Source of the DNA: Desulfobacterales bacterium
GTDB lineage: Bacteria > Desulfobacterota > Desulfobacteria > Desulfobacterales > Desulfobacteraceae
DNA length: 15,576 bases
Direction: 5' to 3'
Assembly (NCBI GenBank): GCA_022361095.1
Contig: JAKSBO010000183.1
Location: 1 to 15,576 of the forward strand
Below the pieces are notes generated by a model, which saw only the letters and a program-made list of their open reading frames with translations, was not told the origin of the DNA and made no database searches. The number at the start of each line of letters is the position of its first letter. Positions within the stretch are counted from its first letter, which is position 1. Made by a program: the position numbers and the translations under genes. Of this stretch, positions 1,423 to 15,287 are shown one piece after another.

Positions 1423-1467
1423 TAAATGACATAGTGTCCGGACATGAACACGAATTAAGGAGGCTTG

Positions 1468-1974
1468 ATGGAGAATAACGAAACACTGGGCAATGCACGC
1501 TTCATCTTTAATACCGGCAGAAAAGTTCACGATAATATCACCCGTATTATAACCGCTGTGGCCATGGAAAAGGGCAAGGCGTCTCAATTCGGAGAGTTGA
1601 GTTATCAACAGAAGAATATGATCATGATGATCCGTGTCCGTGAATGTGTCTCCGTCACCGAGCTGTCCGGGATATTGAACGTTTCTCCGCCATCGGTCTC
1701 TGCCATGGTCGATCGTTTGGTGGAGCGGGGACTGTTGATCCGTACCCATTCTGAAAAAGACCGGCGCAAAGTTGAGATCCGTGTGGCGCCTGCAGCGGTT
1801 GACGAAATCGCTTTGGTCGAGGAAAAATTATTGAACTCCTTCCTAGAGTTAACCCAGTTGCTTGGCCCGGAAATTACCAGCCAATGGTGCTCGGTTTTGC
1901 AACAAATCGAAAAGCTTATAGAAGAAGGTCTTTGGCCTTCCAAAAATTTGTTGAGTGAGGTGGCAAATGAATGA
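1468..1974 (+). CDS. MarR-family transcriptional regulator of the RND efflux operon
   Basis: This 168-residue protein has normal MarR length. An N-terminal dimerisation helix region is followed by a winged helix-turn-helix: helices around VSVTELSGILNVS and PPSVSAMVDRLVERGLL (about residues 61-90), then the wing RTHSEKDRRKVEIRV (92-106) with the DxR-type signature of the family. C-terminal helices (110-155) complete the dimer interface. The ATG at 1468 follows AAGGAGG (1457-1463); a TTG at 1465 is in frame but too close to that site. Its stop overlaps the next gene by 8 bp, so it is co-translated with the pump it probably controls. MarR proteins usually repress and are released by small phenolic or lipophilic ligands; the ligand here is unknown. 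Regulation of itself and the pump from the palindrome at 1366-1394 is inferred. Confidence 0.93.
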   Translation: MENNETLGNARFIFNTGRKVHDNITRIITAVAMEKGKASQFGELSYQQKNMIMMIRVRECVSVTELSGILNVSPPSVSAMVDRLVERGLLIRTHSEKDRRKVEIRVAPAAVDEIALVEEKLLNSFLELTQLLGPEITSQWCSVLQQIEKLIEEGLWPSKNLLSEVANE

Positions 1975-3316
1975 AAAACAAAACCCCAAACGCAAAAAAA
2001 CTATAGCCTACGCGGCCGGATGTGCGCTAATCGTCCTTTTTGGTGCGGTGGGCATGATGGCACTGGCCAGCCTGAAAAAACCGCCAGTGGAGGCGCAAGC
2101 AGAAGAACGGGCCATTTCCGTCCGGGCCGCCACAGCAGGCCTTCAGGACTATCCGGTAACTATTACCGGGTACGGACAGGCCCGGTGCCTGACACAGGTC
2201 GCCATATCTTCCGAGGTGTCGGGCAGGGTGGTTGAAACCCACCCCCTGCTGAAGGTGGGGCAGGTCATTCCAAAGGGCGAGTCTTTGTTTCAAATTGACG
2301 TGTCCGATTATACGGCCAGGCTGCGTGAGGCCCGGGCCGGCGTGGCCCAGTGGAAAAACACGGTGGCTCGCCTTGAAAAGCAACTCTCCATTGACAGAAA
2401 GCGGCTGAAAACAATCCGGCGCAGCGCCGAACTGGCCAAATCCGAATTTCAGCGTGTCCGGGACCTTTTTGTTACCGATCAGGTGGGCACCCGAAGCGGT
2501 GTCGACCAGGAGGAACGTGCCTTCAACACCGCCTGGGATCAGGCCGATGCCATGGCCCAGACCGTAAGCCTTTATCCGTTGCAAATCCGGGAAGCCCAAA
2601 GTTCACTGCATTCCGCCCAGGCCCGGCTTACCATGGCGCAAACCAATCTTGCCCGGTGCCAGGTAAAAGCGCCTTTTGCCGCACGCCTCAAATCGGTCAA
2701 TATAGAGACCGGTCAATATGTCGCACCGGGAACCCAGGTGCTGACGCTTGCCGATGATACCATACTGGAGATCCAGGTTCCCCTGGACAGCCGTGATGCC
2801 CGCAACTGGCTGCAGTTCGAGGAACCTGCAGTTAATTTGCAAACCACGGCCTGGTTCGGCAGGCTGAAACCGGTGGCATGCACCATCCGCTGGACCGAGG
2901 ATAAAACCAGTGCCATATGGCACGGCACACTGAACCGCGTGGTTGAGTTCGACAACCAGACCCGCACCTTGACTGTGGCCGTGCGTATCAGTGCTGCAGA
3001 TGCAGGAAACGGCACCAAAGGACTGCCCCTGGTGGACGGCATGTTCTGTGCTGTGGAAATTCCCGGCCGGATCATGAAAAATGTAATCCGTCTGCCCCGC
3101 CAGGCAGTGACATTTGACAATAAAGTTTTTCTGGCAGATGCGGATAACAGACTTAAAACCGTTTTGGTGGATGTGGTGCGCAGCCAGGGTAAATATGCAT
3201 ATATAAGCCGCGGCATCAAACCTGGTGACCGGGTGATTGTCACCCGGCTGATCGACCCGCTGGAAAACAGTCTGCTCACGTTTGCCGGCAAACCGGAAAA
3301 GGAGCCTGCCCCATGA
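1967..3316 (+). CDS. RND efflux membrane fusion protein (periplasmic adaptor, HlyD/AcrA family)
   Basis: This adaptor of 449 residues should link the inner-membrane pump to the outer-membrane channel encoded next to it. A basic N-terminus is followed by one hydrophobic segment (about 12-36) acting as an uncleaved anchor. A cysteine inside that segment is not a lipobox. The first lipoyl half-motif lies around GRVVETHPLLKVGQVIPKGE (about 85-104). An alpha-helical hairpin rich in Ala, Gln, Arg and Glu covers about 115-225, and the second lipoyl half (CQVKAPFAARLKSVNIETGQ) starts near 231. Beta-barrel and membrane-proximal domains follow to the end. I chose ATG 1967 over GTG 1955 because GAGG at 1957-1960 is well spaced from it. 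The gene overlaps marR by 8 bp and the pump gene by 4 bp (ATGA), indicating translational coupling. The substrate cannot be told from sequence. Confidence 0.93.
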   Translation: MNEKQNPKRKKTIAYAAGCALIVLFGAVGMMALASLKKPPVEAQAEERAISVRAATAGLQDYPVTITGYGQARCLTQVAISSEVSGRVVETHPLLKVGQVIPKGESLFQIDVSDYTARLREARAGVAQWKNTVARLEKQLSIDRKRLKTIRRSAELAKSEFQRVRDLFVTDQVGTRSGVDQEERAFNTAWDQADAMAQTVSLYPLQIREAQSSLHSAQARLTMAQTNLARCQVKAPFAARLKSVNIETGQYVAPGTQVLTLADDTILEIQVPLDSRDARNWLQFEEPAVNLQTTAWFGRLKPVACTIRWTEDKTSAIWHGTLNRVVEFDNQTRTLTVAVRISAADAGNGTKGLPLVDGMFCAVEIPGRIMKNVIRLPRQAVTFDNKVFLADADNRLKTVLVDVVRSQGKYAYISRGIKPGDRVIVTRLIDPLENSLLTFAGKPEKEPAP

Positions 3317-6300
3317 AACAGACCCTTGCAGCCTTTGCCCGCAATACGGTATTTGCCAATATTGTGCTTGTGCTGATTTTTGCCGCAGGATTCATAGCCA
3401 CAGCCAACATGATCCGTGAAACCTTTCCGGAGTTTTCCCTGGATATGATCACCATCTCCGTGCCTTATCCCGGAGCCGATCCGGAAGAGGTGGAGGAGGG
3501 GATCAGCCGCAAGATCGAAGAGGCCATTGAGGGTGTTGAAGGCATTAAGCAATACACGACCGAGTCATCCGAGGGGGTTGGGACCGCCAATATTGAGGTG
3601 CTCGAAAACTATGCCGTGGACGATGTGCTGGATAAAGTGCGTGCCAAGGTCGATGCCATTTCAACCTTTCCGGTGGATGCTGAAAAACCTGTGATCAGTG
3701 AGCTTTTGCTCAAGGACGTGGTCTCCCTGCTCTATTTGTCCGGGGATATGTCCGAAAGGCGTATCAAGGAGTGGTCCGAGCGTATAAAAGATGAAATTCA
3801 GCAATTGCCCGGCATTTCCCAGGTTGCTACCTTTGGCGCACGTGAGTATGAAATCGGCATTGAGGTGTCAGAGGAAAAGCTGCGGGAGTACGGATTGTCC
3901 CTTGATGATGTTTCCCGGGCTGTGAGTCAAAGCAGCCTCAATCTTGCCGGCGGAACCATCCGCACCAGTGAGGAGGAGATTCGCGTGCGCACCATGGGCC
4001 GCAAATATACCGGTGAACAGTTTGCCTCCATTGTGGTCCTGGCCCGCCCCCAGGGCGATGTGATCACCCTGGGCCGCCTGGCCGAAATAAATGACGGGTT
4101 TACCGAAGACCCCATCGCCGCCACCATAAACGGCGAAACCGCGGTGCTTGTGATCGTTTATAAAACCCCTGAAGAGGATGCCCTGAAAATTTCGGGGACC
4201 GTTAAAAAGTATATCGCCGGCAAACAGCTTCAGGTGCCCGAAGGCATGAATATTAAGATGCTTTACGACAATACCCAGATGCTGCGCGCGCGCATTGATC
4301 TGCTTCTCAAAAACGGCATCATCGGCCTTTGCATTGTCTTTTTGCTGCTGTGGTGTTTTTTGAACACCCGGCTCTCCTTCTGGGCCGGCATGGGCATTCC
4401 CATCTCCATTGCCGGCGCCCTGGTGATCCTATGGGGCCTGGGCGGCACCATCAACATGATTTCACTTTTCGGGCTGATCATGGTGCTTGGCATTGTTGTG
4501 GATGACGCCATTGTGGTCGGAGAGGCCATTTATGTGCACCGAAAGCAGGGAAAACCGGCCCTTCAGGCCGCCATAGACGGGGTCAGCGAAGTGGGGATGC
4601 CGGTGATGGCGGCTGTACTGACCACCATCGTAGCCTTCACACCGCTTTTTTACATCGGCGGTATTATGGGGAAATTCATTGCCATCATGCCCGTTGTAGT
4701 GATCGCCTGCCTGGTGGTCTCTTTGGTGGAGTGCCTGTTTCTGCTTCCGGCCCATCTGAGTCATCTGCCCGATCCCAATTCTTCCTCAACTAAAAAAAAC
4801 CGGCTGATCATGGGGCTCTCCAAAGTCCAGGAAACCCTCTCCCGCCGGATGGAACACGTTGTGGATCGCATCTATCTTCCGTTTTTAAGCAAGGCCTTGC
4901 ACTGGCGCTATATCTCCCTGGCAATTGCCATGGCCGTGATGCTGCTGACCATTGGCCTGCTCAAAGGCGGTATCCTTAAATTTGAGGTTTTTCCAAAGAT
5001 GGACGGTTTTATTATGACCGCCACAACACAGTTTCCCAGCGGTACGCCGCCGGATGTTACCAGGCAGGCCATTGCCCGGATTGAAGACGCTTTGATACGG
5101 CTGGAGAAAAAGTATGTTACGCGCAGCGGCGCTCCCTTGGTCAAGGATCGCCTGACACTGGTGGGCCAGACCCTGGGTGATGTCTCTAATACCGGCCCCA
5201 ACTATGGTTCCGTACAGGCGATTCTGCTGGATTCCGAGAGCCGGGGCATACATTCCGAAGACCTGATGGTAGCCTGGGAAAAGGAGATCGGTATTTTGCC
5301 CGGCATAGAATCTTTGATCATTTCAGGCATGGAGACCGGTCCGCCGGGTGATCCCATAGAAGTCTGGCTGCAGGGGTATGACATGGCGGTTATTCTGGCC
5401 GGGGCCGATGACCTTATGGCCCGGTTGCGAAAGTTCGACGGTGTCTATCAGGTCCGCAGCGACTTTTCACCGGGCAAAAACGAGGTGCGCCTGTCCCTGA
5501 AACCTGAAGCGAGAACCTTGGGGGTGACTGTGGAGGATCTTGCCCGCCAGGTCTATGCCGGTTATTACGGCCATGAAGCCCTCCGTCTGCAGCGTGGCCG
5601 TGACGATGTCCGCGTAAAAGTGCGGTACACGGCTGACGAGCGCAGCCGGTTTTCGGACCTGGAACAGGTGCGCATCCGTACTGACGGCGGCTTCGAAGTG
5701 CCGCTCATGTCCGTGGCAGACGTGAGTTTTGCCCCGGGGTTTTCGACCATTACCCGCACCAACGGCATGCGGCGGGTGGCGGTGAGCGCCGCTGTGGACA
5801 CGAAAAAAGCCAATGCCAATGAAATATTTGCCGAATTGTCGGCAAACTATTTTCCTGAAATGAAACAACGCTATCCCGGCTTGTACGTGGCCTTGCAGGG
5901 TGAGAAAAAAAAGATGCGCGAATCATTCGGCAGTCTTCAAATCGGCTTTCCCCTGGCGGTTTTAGGCATTTTTATCATCATTGCCACCATGTTCCGCTCC
6001 TATGCCCAGCCCTTTGTGATATTGTTTACTGTGCCCTTTGGTATCATCGGGGCGGTCATCGGCCACCTGGTTCTAGGGTATGATCTGTCCATGATGAGCA
6101 TGTTCGGCATGGTGGCCCTGACAGGGGTCGTGGTGAACGACGCCATCGTGCTCATTGAACGCATCAATGAAAATCTGGCAGAGAAAATGCCTTTTTTTGA
6201 GGCCATCCTTCAAGGGGGCATGCGGCGCTTCAGGGCCATTTTTCTGACCACATTGAGCACCGTGGGTGGTTTGACACCTTTGATCATGGAAACCGACTTC

Positions 6301-6555
6301 CAGGCAAAATTTTTAATTCCCATGGCACTTTCCATTGCCGCAGGTGTAGCGTTTGCCACAATTCTTACCCTGGTATTGATTCCAAGTCTTCTGGTCATCC
6401 TCAATGACCTGCGGCTGGCAGTGCACCGGCTTCGTTACGGCACCTGGCCCAAGCGTGTGGATGTGGAACCGGCCGCCGGCCGCCACCAACAGCCACTTAA
6501 TCAAGAGAGCAATAAATCAGCGACCCGCGCAATCCATTCAGGAGAATTGAAATAA
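3313..6555 (+). CDS. RND efflux pump, inner-membrane permease (AcrB/HAE-type)
   Basis: This 1080-residue protein has the duplicated RND architecture. TM1 is near 15-33, with a large periplasmic loop to about 330. TM2-6 span about 333-480, and TM7 lies at 531-553. A second periplasmic loop leads to TM8-12, which start near 877, and a hydrophilic tail of about 40 residues ends the protein. TM4 carries the proton-relay pair D397-D398 in GIVVDDAIVVGE. The matching TM10 segment reads GVVVNDAIVLIE, with N942-D943 where AcrB has K940-N941. As the trimeric energy-converting part of a tripartite system it would take substrate from the periplasm or inner leaflet and export it in exchange for protons. 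It lies between its adaptor (4-bp overlap) and outer-membrane factor (1-bp gap). Drug, solvent or bile-salt-like substrates are possible. CusA-type metal pumps are less likely because no methionine relay stands out. Confidence 0.94.
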   Translation: MKQTLAAFARNTVFANIVLVLIFAAGFIATANMIRETFPEFSLDMITISVPYPGADPEEVEEGISRKIEEAIEGVEGIKQYTTESSEGVGTANIEVLENYAVDDVLDKVRAKVDAISTFPVDAEKPVISELLLKDVVSLLYLSGDMSERRIKEWSERIKDEIQQLPGISQVATFGAREYEIGIEVSEEKLREYGLSLDDVSRAVSQSSLNLAGGTIRTSEEEIRVRTMGRKYTGEQFASIVVLARPQGDVITLGRLAEINDGFTEDPIAATINGETAVLVIVYKTPEEDALKISGTVKKYIAGKQLQVPEGMNIKMLYDNTQMLRARIDLLLKNGIIGLCIVFLLLWCFLNTRLSFWAGMGIPISIAGALVILWGLGGTINMISLFGLIMVLGIVVDDAIVVGEAIYVHRKQGKPALQAAIDGVSEVGMPVMAAVLTTIVAFTPLFYIGGIMGKFIAIMPVVVIACLVVSLVECLFLLPAHLSHLPDPNSSSTKKNRLIMGLSKVQETLSRRMEHVVDRIYLPFLSKALHWRYISLAIAMAVMLLTIGLLKGGILKFEVFPKMDGFIMTATTQFPSGTPPDVTRQAIARIEDALIRLEKKYVTRSGAPLVKDRLTLVGQTLGDVSNTGPNYGSVQAILLDSESRGIHSEDLMVAWEKEIGILPGIESLIISGMETGPPGDPIEVWLQGYDMAVILAGADDLMARLRKFDGVYQVRSDFSPGKNEVRLSLKPEARTLGVTVEDLARQVYAGYYGHEALRLQRGRDDVRVKVRYTADERSRFSDLEQVRIRTDGGFEVPLMSVADVSFAPGFSTITRTNGMRRVAVSAAVDTKKANANEIFAELSANYFPEMKQRYPGLYVALQGEKKKMRESFGSLQIGFPLAVLGIFIIIATMFRSYAQPFVILFTVPFGIIGAVIGHLVLGYDLSMMSMFGMVALTGVVVNDAIVLIERINENLAEKMPFFEAILQGGMRRFRAIFLTTLSTVGGLTPLIMETDFQAKFLIPMALSIAAGVAFATILTLVLIPSLLVILNDLRLAVHRLRYGTWPKRVDVEPAAGRHQQPLNQESNKSATRAIHSGELK

Positions 6556-6556
6556 A

Positions 6557-7999
6557 ATGAAAAAAATTATCCTGTTCATTTTGTTGGTCATCATTTGGTT
6601 TGGTCCGGTAGATGGCAGCTGTTCTGCGGCAGGCAACGGCAATGCAGAAACACATGCTGAGCCGCCCCGGCCATCCACTGAAAAGGGCAAGGCCGTTAAT
6701 CTGGCTGAAATCAATACTCTGGACATGGAGACTGCCGTGGCCAAGGCCCTTTGCAGCAATCCGGGAATCCGGGCGGCAAAACAGCGGATTCATCAGGCCA
6801 AGGCAAGGATGGACCAGGCCCGGTCCACCTATTGGCCGCGGCTGGACACCGGCGTCTCCGGAAGATGGGCAAAGCTGTCCGGCAACGCATATGACGAAAA
6901 TTTAACCACAGCCCGTTTTTTCAACCCAAATGCCACCATTGATGATCCTGAAACGTATTATAAAGCAGACCTGACAGCCACCTGGACCCTTTTTGACGGA
7001 TTTGAACGCAAATTTTCCAATCTTGAGGCCCTTTACGGGAAAAGTGTGGAGAGCCAGGGCGTGAAGGATGCCCAACGCCTGCTGGTTTCCGCTGTGGCCC
7101 AATCTTATTTTTCCGCCCAGCTGGCCCTGGAGAACATCGCCATTGAAAAGGCGGACGAGGCTTTTAATCAGCGTCAATTACAGGAGGCCCGGGCCCGTTA
7201 CCGCATGGGAACCGGTTCTTTGAGTGATGTACTTAACTTCCAGGTCAGGGGAAATCAGGCCAAAACCGCCCGTATCAACCAGGAGTATGAATATGATACA
7301 GCCTTGTCCGGCCTGGCAGCCCTTTTAGGGCTTCCCCAGGCCCTGTTTCCCGGCCATCTCCATCTGGCAAGGCTGGCCCCTGAAACAAAAACGGAGCTTT
7401 CCACCCCTTGTGTGGAACAATTAATTGCCCGGGCCTTTGACTTACGGCCCGACATCCAGAAGACGCGCTGGCAGATCAAGCAGACCACAGCCCGGATCAG
7501 GATCGCCCAGGCAGACTACTACCCTTCGGTGGTGGTGAGCGGCAGTATGGAGGGCGAACGAACCGATGACATGCACTTTGGCGGCAACGATTTCGGAAAA
7601 AGTATCCAGGTGGGCCTTTCCTACAATCTTTTTTCAGGGGGGGCCACCAAAGCCAAGGTGCGCGAGGCGAGCCACCGGAAAAAGGAACTTGAAAAACAAT
7701 TGGAGGAGATGATTCTTTCCGTGTCTGCCGATATCAGAGCTTCGGCAGGCCTGGTGGCCACGGCCCAGACCCAGGTGGCCCTGCAACGGCAAAACGTTGA
7801 TCTGGTGCAGCGGACACGCGATCTGGTGGAAAAGGAGTACAATGCAGGACAAGGTTCCCTGGTACGCCTTAACGAGGCCCAGAAAGATTTAACCGCAGCC
7901 CGGGGGGCTCTGGCCTTATCTCTGGTGGCCCTGCGTCAGGCATGGGTGCAGCTGCAGACCCGGACTGGTACTGTTTTGGCAACGTATGGCGTGCTTTGA
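6557..7999 (+). CDS. TolC-family outer-membrane efflux protein
   Basis: This 480-residue outer-membrane factor would form the trimeric exit duct for the pump encoded upstream. The N-terminus MKKIILFILLVIIWFG is a signal peptide, with likely signal peptidase I cleavage near SCSAA. The cysteine there is in a poor lipobox context (DGSC), so lipidation is doubtful. The TolC internal duplication is clear: NPGIRAAKQRIHQAKARMDQ (about 73-92) matches RPDIQKTRWQIKQTTARIRI, and ARYRMGTGSLSDVLNFQ matches KEYNAGQGSLVRLNEAQ. Each pair is one long-helix and beta-strand repeat. GGAG at 6541-6544 serves as ribosome binding site, placed inside the end of the pump gene. With marR, the adaptor and the pump, it completes a self-contained tripartite system. 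Confidence 0.93.
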   Translation: MKKIILFILLVIIWFGPVDGSCSAAGNGNAETHAEPPRPSTEKGKAVNLAEINTLDMETAVAKALCSNPGIRAAKQRIHQAKARMDQARSTYWPRLDTGVSGRWAKLSGNAYDENLTTARFFNPNATIDDPETYYKADLTATWTLFDGFERKFSNLEALYGKSVESQGVKDAQRLLVSAVAQSYFSAQLALENIAIEKADEAFNQRQLQEARARYRMGTGSLSDVLNFQVRGNQAKTARINQEYEYDTALSGLAALLGLPQALFPGHLHLARLAPETKTELSTPCVEQLIARAFDLRPDIQKTRWQIKQTTARIRIAQADYYPSVVVSGSMEGERTDDMHFGGNDFGKSIQVGLSYNLFSGGATKAKVREASHRKKELEKQLEEMILSVSADIRASAGLVATAQTQVALQRQNVDLVQRTRDLVEKEYNAGQGSLVRLNEAQKDLTAARGALALSLVALRQAWVQLQTRTGTVLATYGVL

Positions 8000-11944: not shown

Positions 11945-14134
11945 TTAATTTTTCCGAAACTCACGCTTTGCTTTTTTCACCACGGTCCGGTTTGCTGTTT
12001 TCAGCCGCTTTTCCGCATTTTTAATCAGATGCTCAAAAGCACTGCGCGTATCTTCACCTTTTTGCGCCTTCAGTTTGACGTAGCTGCCGTCACTTTGCAT
12101 CTGCCAGGAACTGTGTCTGTCGTTGAGCTGGATATCAAGCATCTCCCGCAATAAGGCCTGCAGGCGTGGGGATTCCACAGGCGCGCAGACCTCAACCCGG
12201 CTCTCGAGGTTGCGCTTCATCAAATCTGCCGAAGAGATGAAATACTCTTCATTGCCGCCGTTTCGAAAATAAAAAATTCTTGAATGTTCCAAAAACCGGC
12301 CGACGATGGAGATCACGCGCACATTGTCAGACAGGCCTGGAATGCCCGGCCGCAGCCGGCAGGAATCCCGGACGATGAGATCAACATGAACACCGGCCTG
12401 GGAGGCTTTATACAATGCCCGTGTGATATCCTTGTCTTCAAGGGCGTTGGTTTTTAACTGAATGAGTCCTTGCTCGCCACCAGCCTGTAACTTGCCCTCC
12501 CGGCTGATTTTCTCCAGCAGCTTTTTTTTCAAAATATAGGGGCAGGGTAACAGCTTTTTGTAATTACGGGTAACCGTATACCCGGTGGTCAGATAATTAA
12601 ATAGTTCCGTGAGATCGGAGCCGATAACCGAATCACAGGTGAACATACCCAGGTCGCTGTATCCCCGGGCAGTGCCCGCATGATAGTTTCCGGTGCCGAT
12701 ATGGGCGTAGCGGTGCAAACCGTCAAAATCCCTGCGGACAACAAATACAACTTTAGAGTGGGTTTTTAAGTCCACAACCCCGTATGTTACATGGATTCCC
12801 ACCTCTTCCAGAAATCTGGCCCAGCGGATGTTGGCCGACTCGTCGAAACGCGCTTTGAGTTCCACAACCACGGCGACCTGCTTACCGTTCTGGGCTGCAT
12901 CAATCAGGTATTGTATGACCCTGGATTGTTTGGCTGTCCGGTAAAGGGTCATCTTAACGGCCAGAACTTTGGGATCTGTACTGGCTTCTTTTATGAACCG
13001 CTCCACAGAGCTGTCAAAGGATTCATATGGATGCTGCAAAAGGATGGACCCTTTCTCCTTTATGATATGGAATATATTGGGGTCTTCTCCAATCAGTTCC
13101 GGGTGGTCCACGGGTTGATGAAGCCCAAAGCGCAATTCCTGCCGGTCAAGCTGGGCGATTTGCATCAGGTGCCGCTTGGCCATGATTCCCTCAACTTCAA
13201 AAAGGTCCTCTTCTTCATTGATATTGAGTTCTGCGGCCAGCATGCCCCGCAGGGCCGGACTCATCTCCGGGTTCACCTCAAGCCGCACGATCTCTGCAAA
13301 TTTTCTGTCCCGGAGGGCGGATTCGATCATGGATAAAAGATCATTTGCCTGCTCCTGGTCCCGTTCAGTGATGGCATTTCTGGTCACCCGGAAAAAGTCG
13401 CACGATTCAATCACCATGCCCGGGAAAAGCAAGTCAAGGTTATTGGCAATAATATCTTCCAGGGGTACATATAAATCTTCTTGGCCGATCTTTATAAACC
13501 GTGAAGAGATTCCGGAGTCCACCGGCACCTTAATTCGGTTAAGATATGTATGCTCGTCATCGGGATAGCTGACCTTGGCCAAAAGATTCAAAGAGAGGTT
13601 GGATATAAAAGGAAACGGATGTGCCGGATCCATGCCCTGGGGTGTCAGGAGAGGATATACATTATCAAAAAAAAATGTGTTGGCGAATGTCTTCTGCGCT
13701 TTTGTCAACTGGTCGTAGCTGCTGATCACAATGCCCTCTTCAAGGAGCAGTGTTTTCAGCTCGACCTTCAACATCCGGCTTTGTTTTAAAATGTCCCGAA
13801 CAACAACATTGCATTCGTTAATCTGCTCCAGGGGTGTCCGGCCGTCGACACTCAGCTTTTTGACGCCTGCACCGACCAGTTGTTTGAGACCGCCAATACG
13901 TTTCATGAAAAATTCATCAAGATTTGAACCGACAACCGAGAGAAAAAAGAACCGTTCCAGGAGGGGGTTGCGTGAATCCTGCGCCTCGTGGAGAACCCGG
14001 CGGTTGAATTCCAGCCAGGTCAACTCTCTGTTCAGGAACCATTCCGAAGATTTCAGGTCAAACGCCGCAGGGCTTTGCTGTTTGGCCGGAGCCGGCCCGC
14101 TTGCTATGGAATTTTTCTGTTCATCAAGGGACAT
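11945..14134 (-). CDS. ppk: Polyphosphate kinase 1
   Basis: A 729-residue PPK1, which reversibly moves the terminal phosphate of ATP onto polyphosphate. N-domain: WFLNRELTWLEFNRRVLHEA (32-51), with the conserved Asn/Arg/Glu cluster. The helical head domain follows to about 340. The two catalytic C-domains carry the histidines expected for the phosphorylated intermediate and its partner: H459 in DLKTHSKVVFV and H617 in LEHSRIFYFRNGG. HIGTGNYH and SSADLMKRNLESRVEV are further family signatures. The last 40 residues are Lys/Arg-rich. The start has GGAG 9 bases upstream. The gene lies 64 bp behind the aquaporin-arsenate reductase fusion on the same strand with no clear terminator between, so co-transcription is possible. 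Partner genes often found with ppk (ppx, phoU, pst) are not in view. Confidence 0.96.
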   Translation of the reverse strand: MSLDEQKNSIASGPAPAKQQSPAAFDLKSSEWFLNRELTWLEFNRRVLHEAQDSRNPLLERFFFLSVVGSNLDEFFMKRIGGLKQLVGAGVKKLSVDGRTPLEQINECNVVVRDILKQSRMLKVELKTLLLEEGIVISSYDQLTKAQKTFANTFFFDNVYPLLTPQGMDPAHPFPFISNLSLNLLAKVSYPDDEHTYLNRIKVPVDSGISSRFIKIGQEDLYVPLEDIIANNLDLLFPGMVIESCDFFRVTRNAITERDQEQANDLLSMIESALRDRKFAEIVRLEVNPEMSPALRGMLAAELNINEEEDLFEVEGIMAKRHLMQIAQLDRQELRFGLHQPVDHPELIGEDPNIFHIIKEKGSILLQHPYESFDSSVERFIKEASTDPKVLAVKMTLYRTAKQSRVIQYLIDAAQNGKQVAVVVELKARFDESANIRWARFLEEVGIHVTYGVVDLKTHSKVVFVVRRDFDGLHRYAHIGTGNYHAGTARGYSDLGMFTCDSVIGSDLTELFNYLTTGYTVTRNYKKLLPCPYILKKKLLEKISREGKLQAGGEQGLIQLKTNALEDKDITRALYKASQAGVHVDLIVRDSCRLRPGIPGLSDNVRVISIVGRFLEHSRIFYFRNGGNEEYFISSADLMKRNLESRVEVCAPVESPRLQALLREMLDIQLNDRHSSWQMQSDGSYVKLKAQKGEDTRSAFEHLIKNAEKRLKTANRTVVKKAKREFRKN

Positions 14135-14198: not shown

Positions 14199-15287
14199 CT
14201 ATTGTGCTGTAATCTCTTCTTCAAGCCAGTTGTCGATCCGGGTTCGGATCTGATCCCGGATCTGTTTCACCCGGATGATTTTTTCATCAAAAGACCCTTC
14301 AAGGGCAGAGGGGTCTTCAAAACCCCAATGCATTCGTTTACCCTTTCCAAGAAAGACCGGGCACTGTTCTGCAGAGGATTCATCACATACGGTGATGACA
14401 TAATCAAATTCTACACCGGCATCCAGAAATTCGTTGACCGATTTGGTCCGGTTGCCTGAAATGTCAATGCCGTCCTGCTTCATTGCTTCAACAACGACTG
14501 AGTTCAGGTTTCCGGGTTCAAGGCCGGCGCTGAACACTTCAAATTTTTTTGAGCCGGCTTTTTTCAAATAAGCTTCCGCCATCTGGCTTCTGGCCGAATT
14601 ATGAATGCAAACAAATAAAACGCTTTTTTTCATTTTGATATCCATTATAAATCTCCAAAAAAATATTGCCAGGACAGCACCAATAAAAGGTGCCGTCAGA
14701 TAGATCCATAACGCTTGGGTGTTACCGGAAATCAGGGCCGGGCCTAGGGACCTTGCCGGATTCATGGATGCTCCCGTAAATGGACCGGCAAACATTGCCT
14801 CAAACGCAACGGTTCCCCCAATCGCAATGCCTGCCATCAATCCTTGTTCCTTGCTTCCCGTTGCAACATGGATAATGACAAACATTAAAATAAAGGTAAG
14901 AATTATCTCCAAACAAAATGTGTTGACCGGCGGGATGGATGGCAACGTCGCCCCCAAATCTGATCCGGGGAGATTAATAAACAGTTTCAGCAGCAGACTT
15001 GCAAAAATGCTGCCTGAAAACTGCGCTGCAAAATAAGGCAGGATTTGATTTTTATCGAACCTTCCGGCAACATAAAACGCCAGTGTGACGGCAGGATTTA
15101 AATGGGCCCCGGACTTTTCTCCCACGCTGTATATCATTGACATGACCACAAATCCAAAGACAAGCGCGATCCCGGTATGGGAGACGGCGCCCTGGGAAAA
15201 ATTATTTGCCACGATCGCCCCGGTACCGGCAAAAACAAGCATAAATGTTGCTATGAATTCTGCAGAATATTTTCTGAAATTTTCCAT
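14199..15287 (-). CDS. Aquaglyceroporin-arsenate reductase fusion (MIP-ArsC)
   Basis: One 362-residue frame joins two complete proteins. Residues 1-214 are a MIP channel with six membrane segments and two NPA boxes (64-66 in HLNPAV, 176-178 in SMNPARS). By alignment to AqpZ the selectivity filter is F44, A164, A173, R179, lacking the pore-narrowing His of water channels, so small neutral solutes such as As(OH)3 could pass. Residues 219-362 are a low-molecular-weight-phosphatase-type ArsC: P-loop CIHNSAR (C227, R233) and the redox pair C301/C309 in CDESSAEQC, the three cysteines of thioredoxin-coupled arsenate reductases. Arsenate would be reduced at the cytoplasmic face and arsenite leave through the attached channel. 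Similar channel-enzyme fusions are known from actinobacteria. The start has only a weak ribosome binding site. No ArsR, ArsB or Acr3 gene is visible nearby. Confidence 0.93.
   Translation of the reverse strand: MENFRKYSAEFIATFMLVFAGTGAIVANNFSQGAVSHTGIALVFGFVVMSMIYSVGEKSGAHLNPAVTLAFYVAGRFDKNQILPYFAAQFSGSIFASLLLKLFINLPGSDLGATLPSIPPVNTFCLEIILTFILMFVIIHVATGSKEQGLMAGIAIGGTVAFEAMFAGPFTGASMNPARSLGPALISGNTQALWIYLTAPFIGAVLAIFFWRFIMDIKMKKSVLFVCIHNSARSQMAEAYLKKAGSKKFEVFSAGLEPGNLNSVVVEAMKQDGIDISGNRTKSVNEFLDAGVEFDYVITVCDESSAEQCPVFLGKGKRMHWGFEDPSALEGSFDEKIIRVKQIRDQIRTRIDNWLEEEITAQ
14643..14656 (-). promoter_or_regulatory. Internal Shine-Dalgarno and ATG at the MIP/ArsC junction
   Basis: Inside the fusion frame the codons for Trp-Arg (TGG AGA) form GGAGA (14652-14656), followed after six bases by an in-frame ATG (14643-14645), residue M215. 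Translation from here would give MDIKMKKSVLFVCIHNSARS..., a 148-residue stand-alone ArsC of normal length. This looks like the retained start of an ArsC gene that once overlapped or abutted the channel gene, or a working internal start. It is better spaced than the site at the fusion's own ATG. Confidence 0.6.

What the first reader, a model, noticed from the sequence alone, without database searches (positions are those of the whole stretch)
14199..15287. Single-frame channel-enzyme fusion: aquaglyceroporin joined to thioredoxin-type arsenate reductase
Both NPA boxes of a MIP channel and all three ArsC redox cysteines (C227, C301, C309) sit in one uninterrupted 362-residue frame. The product would couple arsenate reduction to arsenite exit through its own pore, without an energised ArsB/Acr3 pump. 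MIP-ArsC and related channel-enzyme fusions are known from actinobacteria. Finding one in what looks like an anaerobic deltaproteobacterium suggests independent fusion or transfer.
Basis: partly seen in the sequence, partly recalled or inferred. Interest (0 to 1): 0.75.

Follow-up and report, generated by a model that had tools for sequence, protein, structure and literature searches.

The report
Fused arsenic channel and arsenate reductase
A sulfate-reducing bacterium appears to make one protein that joins an arsenic-type membrane channel to the enzyme producing the arsenic compound the channel could let out; the design was already known from actinobacteria, and here it was probably put together separately from local parts.

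Summary
In detail: window 15287..14199 (minus strand) is one 362-residue frame, MIP channel (2-209) plus arsenate-reductase-type LMWPc domain (223-355), with both NPA boxes and C227, C301, C309. It is no assembly artefact: the same full-length frame (89-92% identical) occurs in three more same-genus genomes, two of them single-contig, under strong purifying selection (dN/dS 0.06-0.12). The genus is Desulfobacter (inferred). MIP-ArsC fusions are already known from actinobacteria. New here: (1) the pore is not GlpF-type but closest to rice NIP2;1 (Lsi1), with an F/A/A/R filter shared with 11 stand-alone MIPs, 9 of them near ars genes. (2) Both halves have their nearest sampled kin in Desulfobacterota, so the fusion probably arose locally; actinobacterial fusions could not be put in the trees. 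(3) The linker is almost nil (helix to 218, ArsC strand from 221, model). (4) The locus has decayed naturally: one genome lost the channel but kept free ArsC, another carries an IS66-type insertion at the junction. (5) It lies just upstream of ppk1, in G016 among further polyphosphate genes. The own draft genome shows no ACR3 or ArsB over cut-off. Function is inferred, not shown.

The parts
14199..15287 (-). MIP-ArsC fusion gene, 362 aa, ATG at 15287, stop at 14201-14199
   Evidence: same frame in three more genomes
14661..15284 (-). MIP channel domain, residues 2-209; nearest solved structure rice NIP2;1 (Lsi1)
   Evidence: Pfam, PDB sequence search, Foldseek of the model
15090..15098 (-). 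NPA box 1 (N64-P65-A66)
14754..14762 (-). NPA box 2 (N176-P177-A178); selectivity filter F44/A164/A173/R179
14631..14654 (-). Junction, codons 212-219 (RFIMDIKM): end of TM6 helix (model 193-218) joined to ArsC strand 1 (221-227); holds ATG codons 215 and 219, possible internal starts, with GGAG 7 nt before ATG 215
14223..14621 (-). ArsC (LMWPc) domain, residues 223-355; C227 at 14609-14607, C301 at 14387-14385, C309 at 14363-14361
11945..14134 (-). ppk1, polyphosphate kinase 1, 64 bp downstream on the same strand
   Evidence: Pfam; ppk1 in the same place in L057, L059, L060 and (broken in frame) L061, absent there in L058
15427..15474 (-). Upstream block conserved in other loci, including the channel-less G005; probably promoter or regulatory (approximate limits)

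Best explanation
The gene encodes an inner-membrane arsenate-detoxifying channel-enzyme. The C-terminal thioredoxin-type ArsC, held at the cytosolic face by TM6, reduces arsenate through C227, C301 and C309 (inferred from conserved residues). The arsenite made there is neutral As(OH)3, which leaves down its local gradient through the NIP-like F/A/A/R pore of the same polypeptide (inferred). The protein is presumably a tetramer with four pores and four enzymes (family knowledge). The fusion most likely formed within Desulfobacter, when an ars-type MIP gene was joined in frame to the local arsC at or near its own start codon, replacing the cytosolic tail that stand-alone MIPs carry (inferred from trees and alignment). 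Shown here: one conserved frame in four genomes, residue conservation, selection, nearest sampled relatives, predicted fold.
For: Both domains complete with key residues. Four intact orthologues with pairwise dS 0.45-0.61 and dN/dS 0.06-0.12 over the whole frame; MIP half 0.07-0.14, ArsC half 0.03-0.10. MIP half best matches OsNIP2;1 by sequence (E 4e-45, against 4.5e-29 for the best AqpZ and 2.6e-21 for the best GlpF) and by model (TM 0.92 on the target). A review states that Lsi1 takes part in arsenite uptake and efflux (passages of PMC9510833). F/A/A/R in all 15 distinct intact members of this MIP group, against His at the H5 position in 34 of the 35 remaining rows, a few of which are duplicates. 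Six full-length stand-alone MIPs of other Desulfobacterota: in 3 of 6 an arsC-family gene follows at once in the order MIP then arsC, in 2 more one lies within about 2.5 kb, in 1 none was found. Rubrobacter, Deinococcus and Oscillatoria plasmids carry the MIP in ars clusters. G000: no ACR3 over cut-off, no SBF match, ArsB only below cut-off. G016, a 6.07 Mb single-contig genome, has the fusion and no ACR3 over cut-off. AlphaFold2 model: mean pLDDT 89.3, TM6 helix 193-218, strand from 221.
Against: No functional data. No ars operon gene (arsR, acr3) was recognised among the ORFs beside the fusion in the loci read and no ArsR site upstream. G007 carries an intact ACR3 as well, so the fusion is not always the only exit. 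The own genome is a draft, so a missing pump gene is not proof; a 23.9-bit fragment match to ACR3 is present, far below the cut-off of 282.8. G005 kept ArsC but lost the channel, so fusion is not indispensable. Model pTM 0.70 and lower pLDDT (77, residues 211-220) leave the placement of ArsC against the pore open. In sulfidic sediment a passive pore could also admit arsenite.
Confidence: 0.75

Rival explanations
1. Two proteins from one gene: besides the fusion, an internal start at ATG 215 or 219 yields free cytosolic ArsC, so the locus supplies both membrane-bound and soluble reductase.
For: ATG 215 is kept in 4 of 4 fusions, with GGAG or GGAA 7-8 nt upstream. In G005, which lost the channel, the arsC frame begins at that same ATG behind the same leader. 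ATG 219 lines up with the start of D. vibrioformis ArsC (alignment). A promoter-like match ends at the junction (6 found in the region against 2.9 expected, so weak).
Against: The GGAG/GGAA letters fall in Trp-Arg/Lys codons that the TM6 end may need anyway. ATG 219 is lost in G004. No expression data.
Confidence: 0.35
2. The LMWPc half is a protein tyrosine phosphatase or phosphate-related enzyme, tied to polyphosphate metabolism rather than arsenic.
For: LMWPc is shared with phosphatases. In G016 the gene lies between ppx/gppA and ppk1. The arsC equivalog cut-off is not reached.
Against: C301 and C309 match the later cysteines of ArsC. The best family model for this half is arsC_pI258. The MIP partner is of a mostly ars-associated type.
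Confidence: 0.1
3. The fusion was acquired from actinobacteria by gene transfer.
For: MIP-ArsC fusions are described from Salinispora (passages of PMC9775063 and PMC6205960).
Against: The ArsC half falls in an 8-row Desulfobacter clade (100/100) with stand-alone ArsCs of the same genus 80-84% identical. The MIP half falls in a 10-row Desulfobacterota clade (96/94), with the Rubrobacter MIP outside it. Neither tree contains an actinobacterial fusion.
Confidence: 0.06
4. Assembly or sequencing artefact joining two neighbouring genes.
For: The source is a 1178-contig draft genome and the gene lies 289 bp from a contig end.
Against: Same architecture in G016 and G004, each a single contig, and in G007, with many synonymous but few amino-acid changes.
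Confidence: 0.01

Closest known systems
MIP-ArsC channel-enzyme fusion of Salinispora tropica and relatives (Wu, Song and Beitz 2010; paper not held; seen only as cited in passages of PMC9775063, PMC6205960 and PMC12838822)
   Same: N-terminal MIP channel, C-terminal arsenate reductase in one polypeptide; proposed local production and exit of arsenite
   Different: Different phylum; parts of apparently local origin; NIP-like F/A/A/R pore (the Salinispora filter and linker could not be compared); beside ppk1 in 3 of the 4 intact loci
AqpS of the Sinorhizobium meliloti ars operon (passages of PMC6205960 and PMC9454679, section 13 of PMC4531530)
   Same: MIP channel used as arsenite exit together with ArsC
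   Different: Separate proteins in an ars operon; rhizobial plasmid MIP/arsC places hit here are 34-40% identical over joined pieces
Bacterial NIP/AqpN-type channels and plant NIP2;1 (Lsi1)
   Same: NIP2;1 is the best sequence and fold match of the channel half; metalloid permeation
   Different: Filter F/A/A/R here (Lsi1's G/S/G/R is recalled and agrees with the letters in the alignment); no enzyme fused; AqpN membership not tested by tree
ACR3-ArsC fusion of Mycobacterium (passages of PMC6205960 and PMC6514093)
   Same: Transporter plus ArsC in one chain
   Different: A carrier of another family instead of a channel
ArsC of B. subtilis and S. aureus pI258
   Same: P-loop CX5R and two further cysteines align
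   Different: One more residue between the last two cysteines; membrane-tethered here

Membership tests
MIP-ArsC channel-enzyme fusions | Complete MIP domain followed by ArsC in one frame | tested here: met
MIP-ArsC channel-enzyme fusions | Both NPA boxes and the filter arginine intact | tested here: met
   N64-P65-A66, N176-P177-A178, R179
MIP-ArsC channel-enzyme fusions | Common descent with the actinobacterial fusions | tested here: inconclusive
   Both halves nest with Desulfobacterota sequences, but no actinobacterial fusion was reachable
MIP-ArsC channel-enzyme fusions | Confers arsenate resistance | not testable with these tools
   needs expression
Thioredoxin-type ArsC | P-loop Cys plus two further redox Cys | tested here: met
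   C227, C301, C309 aligned to 1jl3; conserved in 4 of 4 fusions
Thioredoxin-type ArsC | NCBIfam TIGR02691 equivalog cut-off | tested here: not met
   112 against 174.3 bits, best ArsC model all the same; so described as ArsC of this type, not as the equivalog
GlpF-type aquaglyceroporin | Nearest to GlpF in sequence and filter | tested here: not met
   GlpF (2.6e-21 at best) far behind NIP2;1 and AqpZ; filter F/A/A/R; W/G/F/R of GlpF is recalled
NIP/AqpN-like metalloid channel | Nearest solved relative is a NIP | tested here: met
NIP/AqpN-like metalloid channel | Placement in the AqpN clade of published trees | not tested
   reference sequences not held

The most novel reading that the evidence does not exclude
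The gene is part of an arsenate-phosphate quality-control module: transcribed with ppk1 (in G016 also near Ppx/GppA, CHAD and CYTH genes), the membrane-bound ArsC-channel removes arsenate where polyphosphate is made and expels it, while an internal start supplies extra soluble ArsC. In sulfidic sediment, external sulfide would thiolate the released arsenite and keep the outward gradient without any pump.
Probability: 0.17. Interest if true: 0.65.

Novelty: new member of a known kind. Interest (0 to 1): 0.45.

Why it matters
It suggests that joining an arsenite channel to its substrate-making enzyme happened more than once, and here the steps can be seen: free arsC in relatives, MIP-arsC gene pairs in the phylum, the fusion, and its natural undoing by deletion and by an insertion element. 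That set lets one test directly whether physical fusion, rather than mere co-expression, helps arsenate tolerance. The polyphosphate neighbourhood suggests a link between arsenate removal and phosphate storage that can be tested.

Tried and rejected
Artefact or frameshift: rejected. GlpF-type pore: rejected. Complementary distribution of fusion and ACR3: looked for, not supported. ACR3 is over cut-off in 10 of 19 genus genomes. Counting G004's ACR3, which lacks 89 residues against G007's, as not intact, it is intact in 1 of 4 fusion genomes and 8 of 15 others, Fisher p 0.58; two of the 15 are only 56% and 74% complete. ArsR operator upstream of the fusion: none recognised by eye in the aligned upstream regions. 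Phage records: 31 of 50,697 match, none covering 80% of the query. Plasmids: 2440 of 72,556 records match, and 9 hold a place (pieces joined) covering at least 80% of the query. Eight of the nine (one Rubrobacter, seven Deinococcus) match in two pieces, with arsC and the MIP (in one record called a hypothetical protein) listed as different genes; two of these were opened. The ninth, Paracoccus, is an aquaporin alone. Literature link of ppk and arsenate: 12 of 24 papers listed, no title specific, none opened.

Print search for this fusion in Desulfobacter: 20 of 26 papers listed; 15 of 192; 15 of 19; 6 of 6; 10 of 10; 3 of 3. No listed title or abstract start describes it. Most of these papers were not opened. 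Of those opened by term search, PMC10060404 has no 'fusion', 'aquaporin' or 'AqpS' in its main text, and PMC9454679 and PMC2848241 use aqpS-arsC for the separate Sinorhizobium genes. This covers open-licence PMC papers only.

The five plasmid MIPs lie outside the Desulfobacterota MIP clade and have long branches; treekit warned of long branches meeting, L102 with the fusions among them. The G006 row in the filter table (F/G/C/K) comes from its frameshift and was dropped from the counts. Some AqpZ-like hits with stop-to-stop frames of 302-339 aa were not examined for fusions.

Full report
What is there. The frame runs on the minus strand from ATG at 15287 to a stop ending at 14199, 362 residues. 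Pfam finds MIP (2-209) and LMWPc (223-355), both over their cut-offs. NCBIfam's best ArsC model is the thioredoxin-type arsC_pI258 family, under its equivalog cut-off. Residues 64-66 and 176-178 are NPA boxes. C227, C301 and C309 align with three cysteines of B. subtilis ArsC; that those three are the redox ones is general knowledge.

Where it is. The window is the whole of contig C1134 of a draft genome of 5.22 Mb in 1178 contigs, 95.67% complete and 7.07% contaminated. I take the genus as Desulfobacter on that inference.

Is the fusion real. Of 19 genus genomes searched, full-length fusions occur in G000, G016, G007 and G004. G016 and G004 hold it on single contigs of 6.07 and 6.48 Mb. Pairwise dS over the whole frame is 0.45-0.61 with dN/dS 0.06-0.12. 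The 22-codon junction windows gave erratic ratios (0.05 to 1.18) and are not used. In G006 an ORF with a DDE_Tnp_IS66 domain sits between the halves, bounded by an 8-base direct repeat and inverted ends read by eye, and there is also a frame break near codon 159. The neighbouring ppk1 of G006 is broken in frame too, so the frame breaks, unlike the insertion, could be sequence errors. In G005 the channel is gone apart from about a dozen end codons, while ArsC is intact at 95% identity and the upstream conserved block is retained. G003 and G013 have stand-alone ArsC of the same clade, 84% and 80% identical, in other contexts. In a pattern scan of one genome for each of 84,980 species, 25 relatives were confirmed; only one, the 'D. 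postgatei' MAG, matches both halves, the others the ArsC half. That scan reaches close relatives only.

The channel half. Its nearest solved structures are two entries of rice NIP2;1 (E 4.1e-45 and 1.2e-44), then AqpZ and other aquaporins (from 4.5e-29), with GlpF at 2.6e-21 at best. Foldseek on the AlphaFold2 model also ranks NIP2;1 first, TM 0.92 on the target. The filter is F44/A164/A173/R179. Of 57 aligned rows, 21 have F/A/A/R (15 distinct proteins: 4 fusions, 6 Desulfobacterota stand-alone MIPs, 5 plasmid MIPs, the rest duplicates), one is the broken G006 copy, and of the other 35, 34 carry His at H5 (30 of them F/H/T/R) and one is F/I/A/R. Among the six Desulfobacterota stand-alone MIPs, L104, L106 and L107 have an arsC-family gene (32-34% identical to the fused one) directly behind them, L103 and L105 have one within about 2.5 kb, and in L102 none was found; a seventh hit, G685, is a partial frame. 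On plasmids the MIP lies with arsR and arsC in Rubrobacter, Deinococcus and Oscillatoria and about 3 kb from an ArsI/CadI gene in Priestia; the Hymenobacter one has no ars neighbour in the stretch read. Papers state that Lsi1 passes arsenite and that NIPs came to plants from bacteria (passages).

The junction. The model has TM6 as one helix 193-218 and the first ArsC strand at 221-227, so there is practically no linker. Five of six stand-alone relatives instead have a Cys-Cys pair in the tail after TM6. Mean pLDDT is 89.3 and pTM 0.70; the block 211-220 has 77. The placement of the enzyme against the pore is therefore not established.

Origin. The ArsC tree (64 rows) puts the four fusions, G005, G006, G003 and G013 in one clade, 100/100; its sister row is an Omnitrophota ArsC (84/92, not strong), and the next are mainly Desulfobacterota. 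The MIP tree (47 rows) puts the 4 fusions with the 6 Desulfobacterota stand-alone MIPs, 96/94. In 389 genomes of the class and 395 of the phylum (overlapping samples) searched with the channel half at E<=1e-25, the fused frames seen among hits over 50% identity were the Desulfobacter ones; the seven other genomes with such hits have a MIP frame of 158-250 aa. This fits a local fusion of an ars-type MIP with the native arsC. Actinobacterial fusions could not be included, so independent origin is probable, not proven.

Other arsenite exits. G000 has no ACR3 over cut-off (one 23.9-bit fragment match), no SBF match and ArsB only as a 21.3-bit match, under the 22.2 cut-off, in a 616-aa frame. G016 has no ACR3 over cut-off; its ArsB matches barely pass (24.1 and 22.6 bits, in 595- and 616-aa frames) and look like other carriers. 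G004 has an arsC-acr3 cluster with an ArsR-looking ORF, whose acr3 lacks 89 residues; G007 has an intact one. Over the genus there is no significant association.

Neighbourhood. In the single-contig genome G016 the order is CYTH, ParA-like ATPase, CHAD, Ppx/GppA, an Fe-S_biosyn-like gene (below that family's cut-off), an unassigned ORF, the fusion, ppk1; only the fusion and ppk1 are neighbours on one strand. Fusion and ppk1 are 64 bp apart in the window with no terminator-like site between them. Of the ppk1 copies of this type found in the genus, those of G000 and G007 and one of G016 lie beside the fusion, that of G005 beside the free arsC and one of G006 beside the split copy, while in G004 and G015 another arsC-family gene (37.5% identical) lies divergently beside ppk1; the copies in G018, G009, G002 and G017 and the second copies in G016 and G006 have no arsC match in the flanks held. 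In G004 the fusion itself has no ppk1 next to it. That CHAD and CYTH proteins relate to polyphosphate is recalled.

How it most likely works. Arsenate enters by phosphate transporters (review passages). The ArsC half reduces it with thioredoxin, and arsenous acid leaves by the attached pore. Reviews of the actinobacterial fusions describe this mechanism (passages). Each step is inferred for this protein. A channel can only let arsenite run downhill (passage of PMC9454679), and the S. meliloti case, resistant to internally made but sensitive to outside arsenite, gives the expected cost (passage).

Verdict. A real, conserved, selected fusion; a new and probably independently formed member of a known kind, with a NIP-like pore and an unusual gene neighbourhood.

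Noticed in passing
window 11945-14134 and L057: The fusion lies directly upstream of ppk1; in G016 (L057) CYTH, CHAD and Ppx/GppA genes are near too.
   Followed up: partly
L148 and L147 (G004, G015): A different arsC-family gene (37.5% identical) stands divergently beside ppk1, so arsC-ppk1 neighbourhood recurs in the genus.
   Followed up: partly
L102, L103, L104, L106, L107: Stand-alone ars-type MIPs carry a Cys-Cys pair in the tail after TM6, at the place where ArsC is attached in the fusion; possibly arsenite-binding.
   Followed up: no
L061 8041-9486: IS66-type element inserted just past the MIP-ArsC junction in G006, with an 8-base direct repeat.
   Followed up: yes
L060 about 7160-7630: G005 lost the channel but kept a free ArsC starting at the junction ATG: natural gene fission.
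   Followed up: yes
L136 1614-2525: acr3 of G004 lacks 89 residues against G007; probably non-functional, in a genome that carries the fusion.
   Followed up: partly
window 1465-7999: By eye, a MarR-like regulator followed by an RND-type efflux set (membrane fusion, pump, outer-membrane protein).
   Followed up: no
G016 and G006: These genomes carry more than one ppk1; the copy beside the fusion locus is one of them.
   Followed up: no
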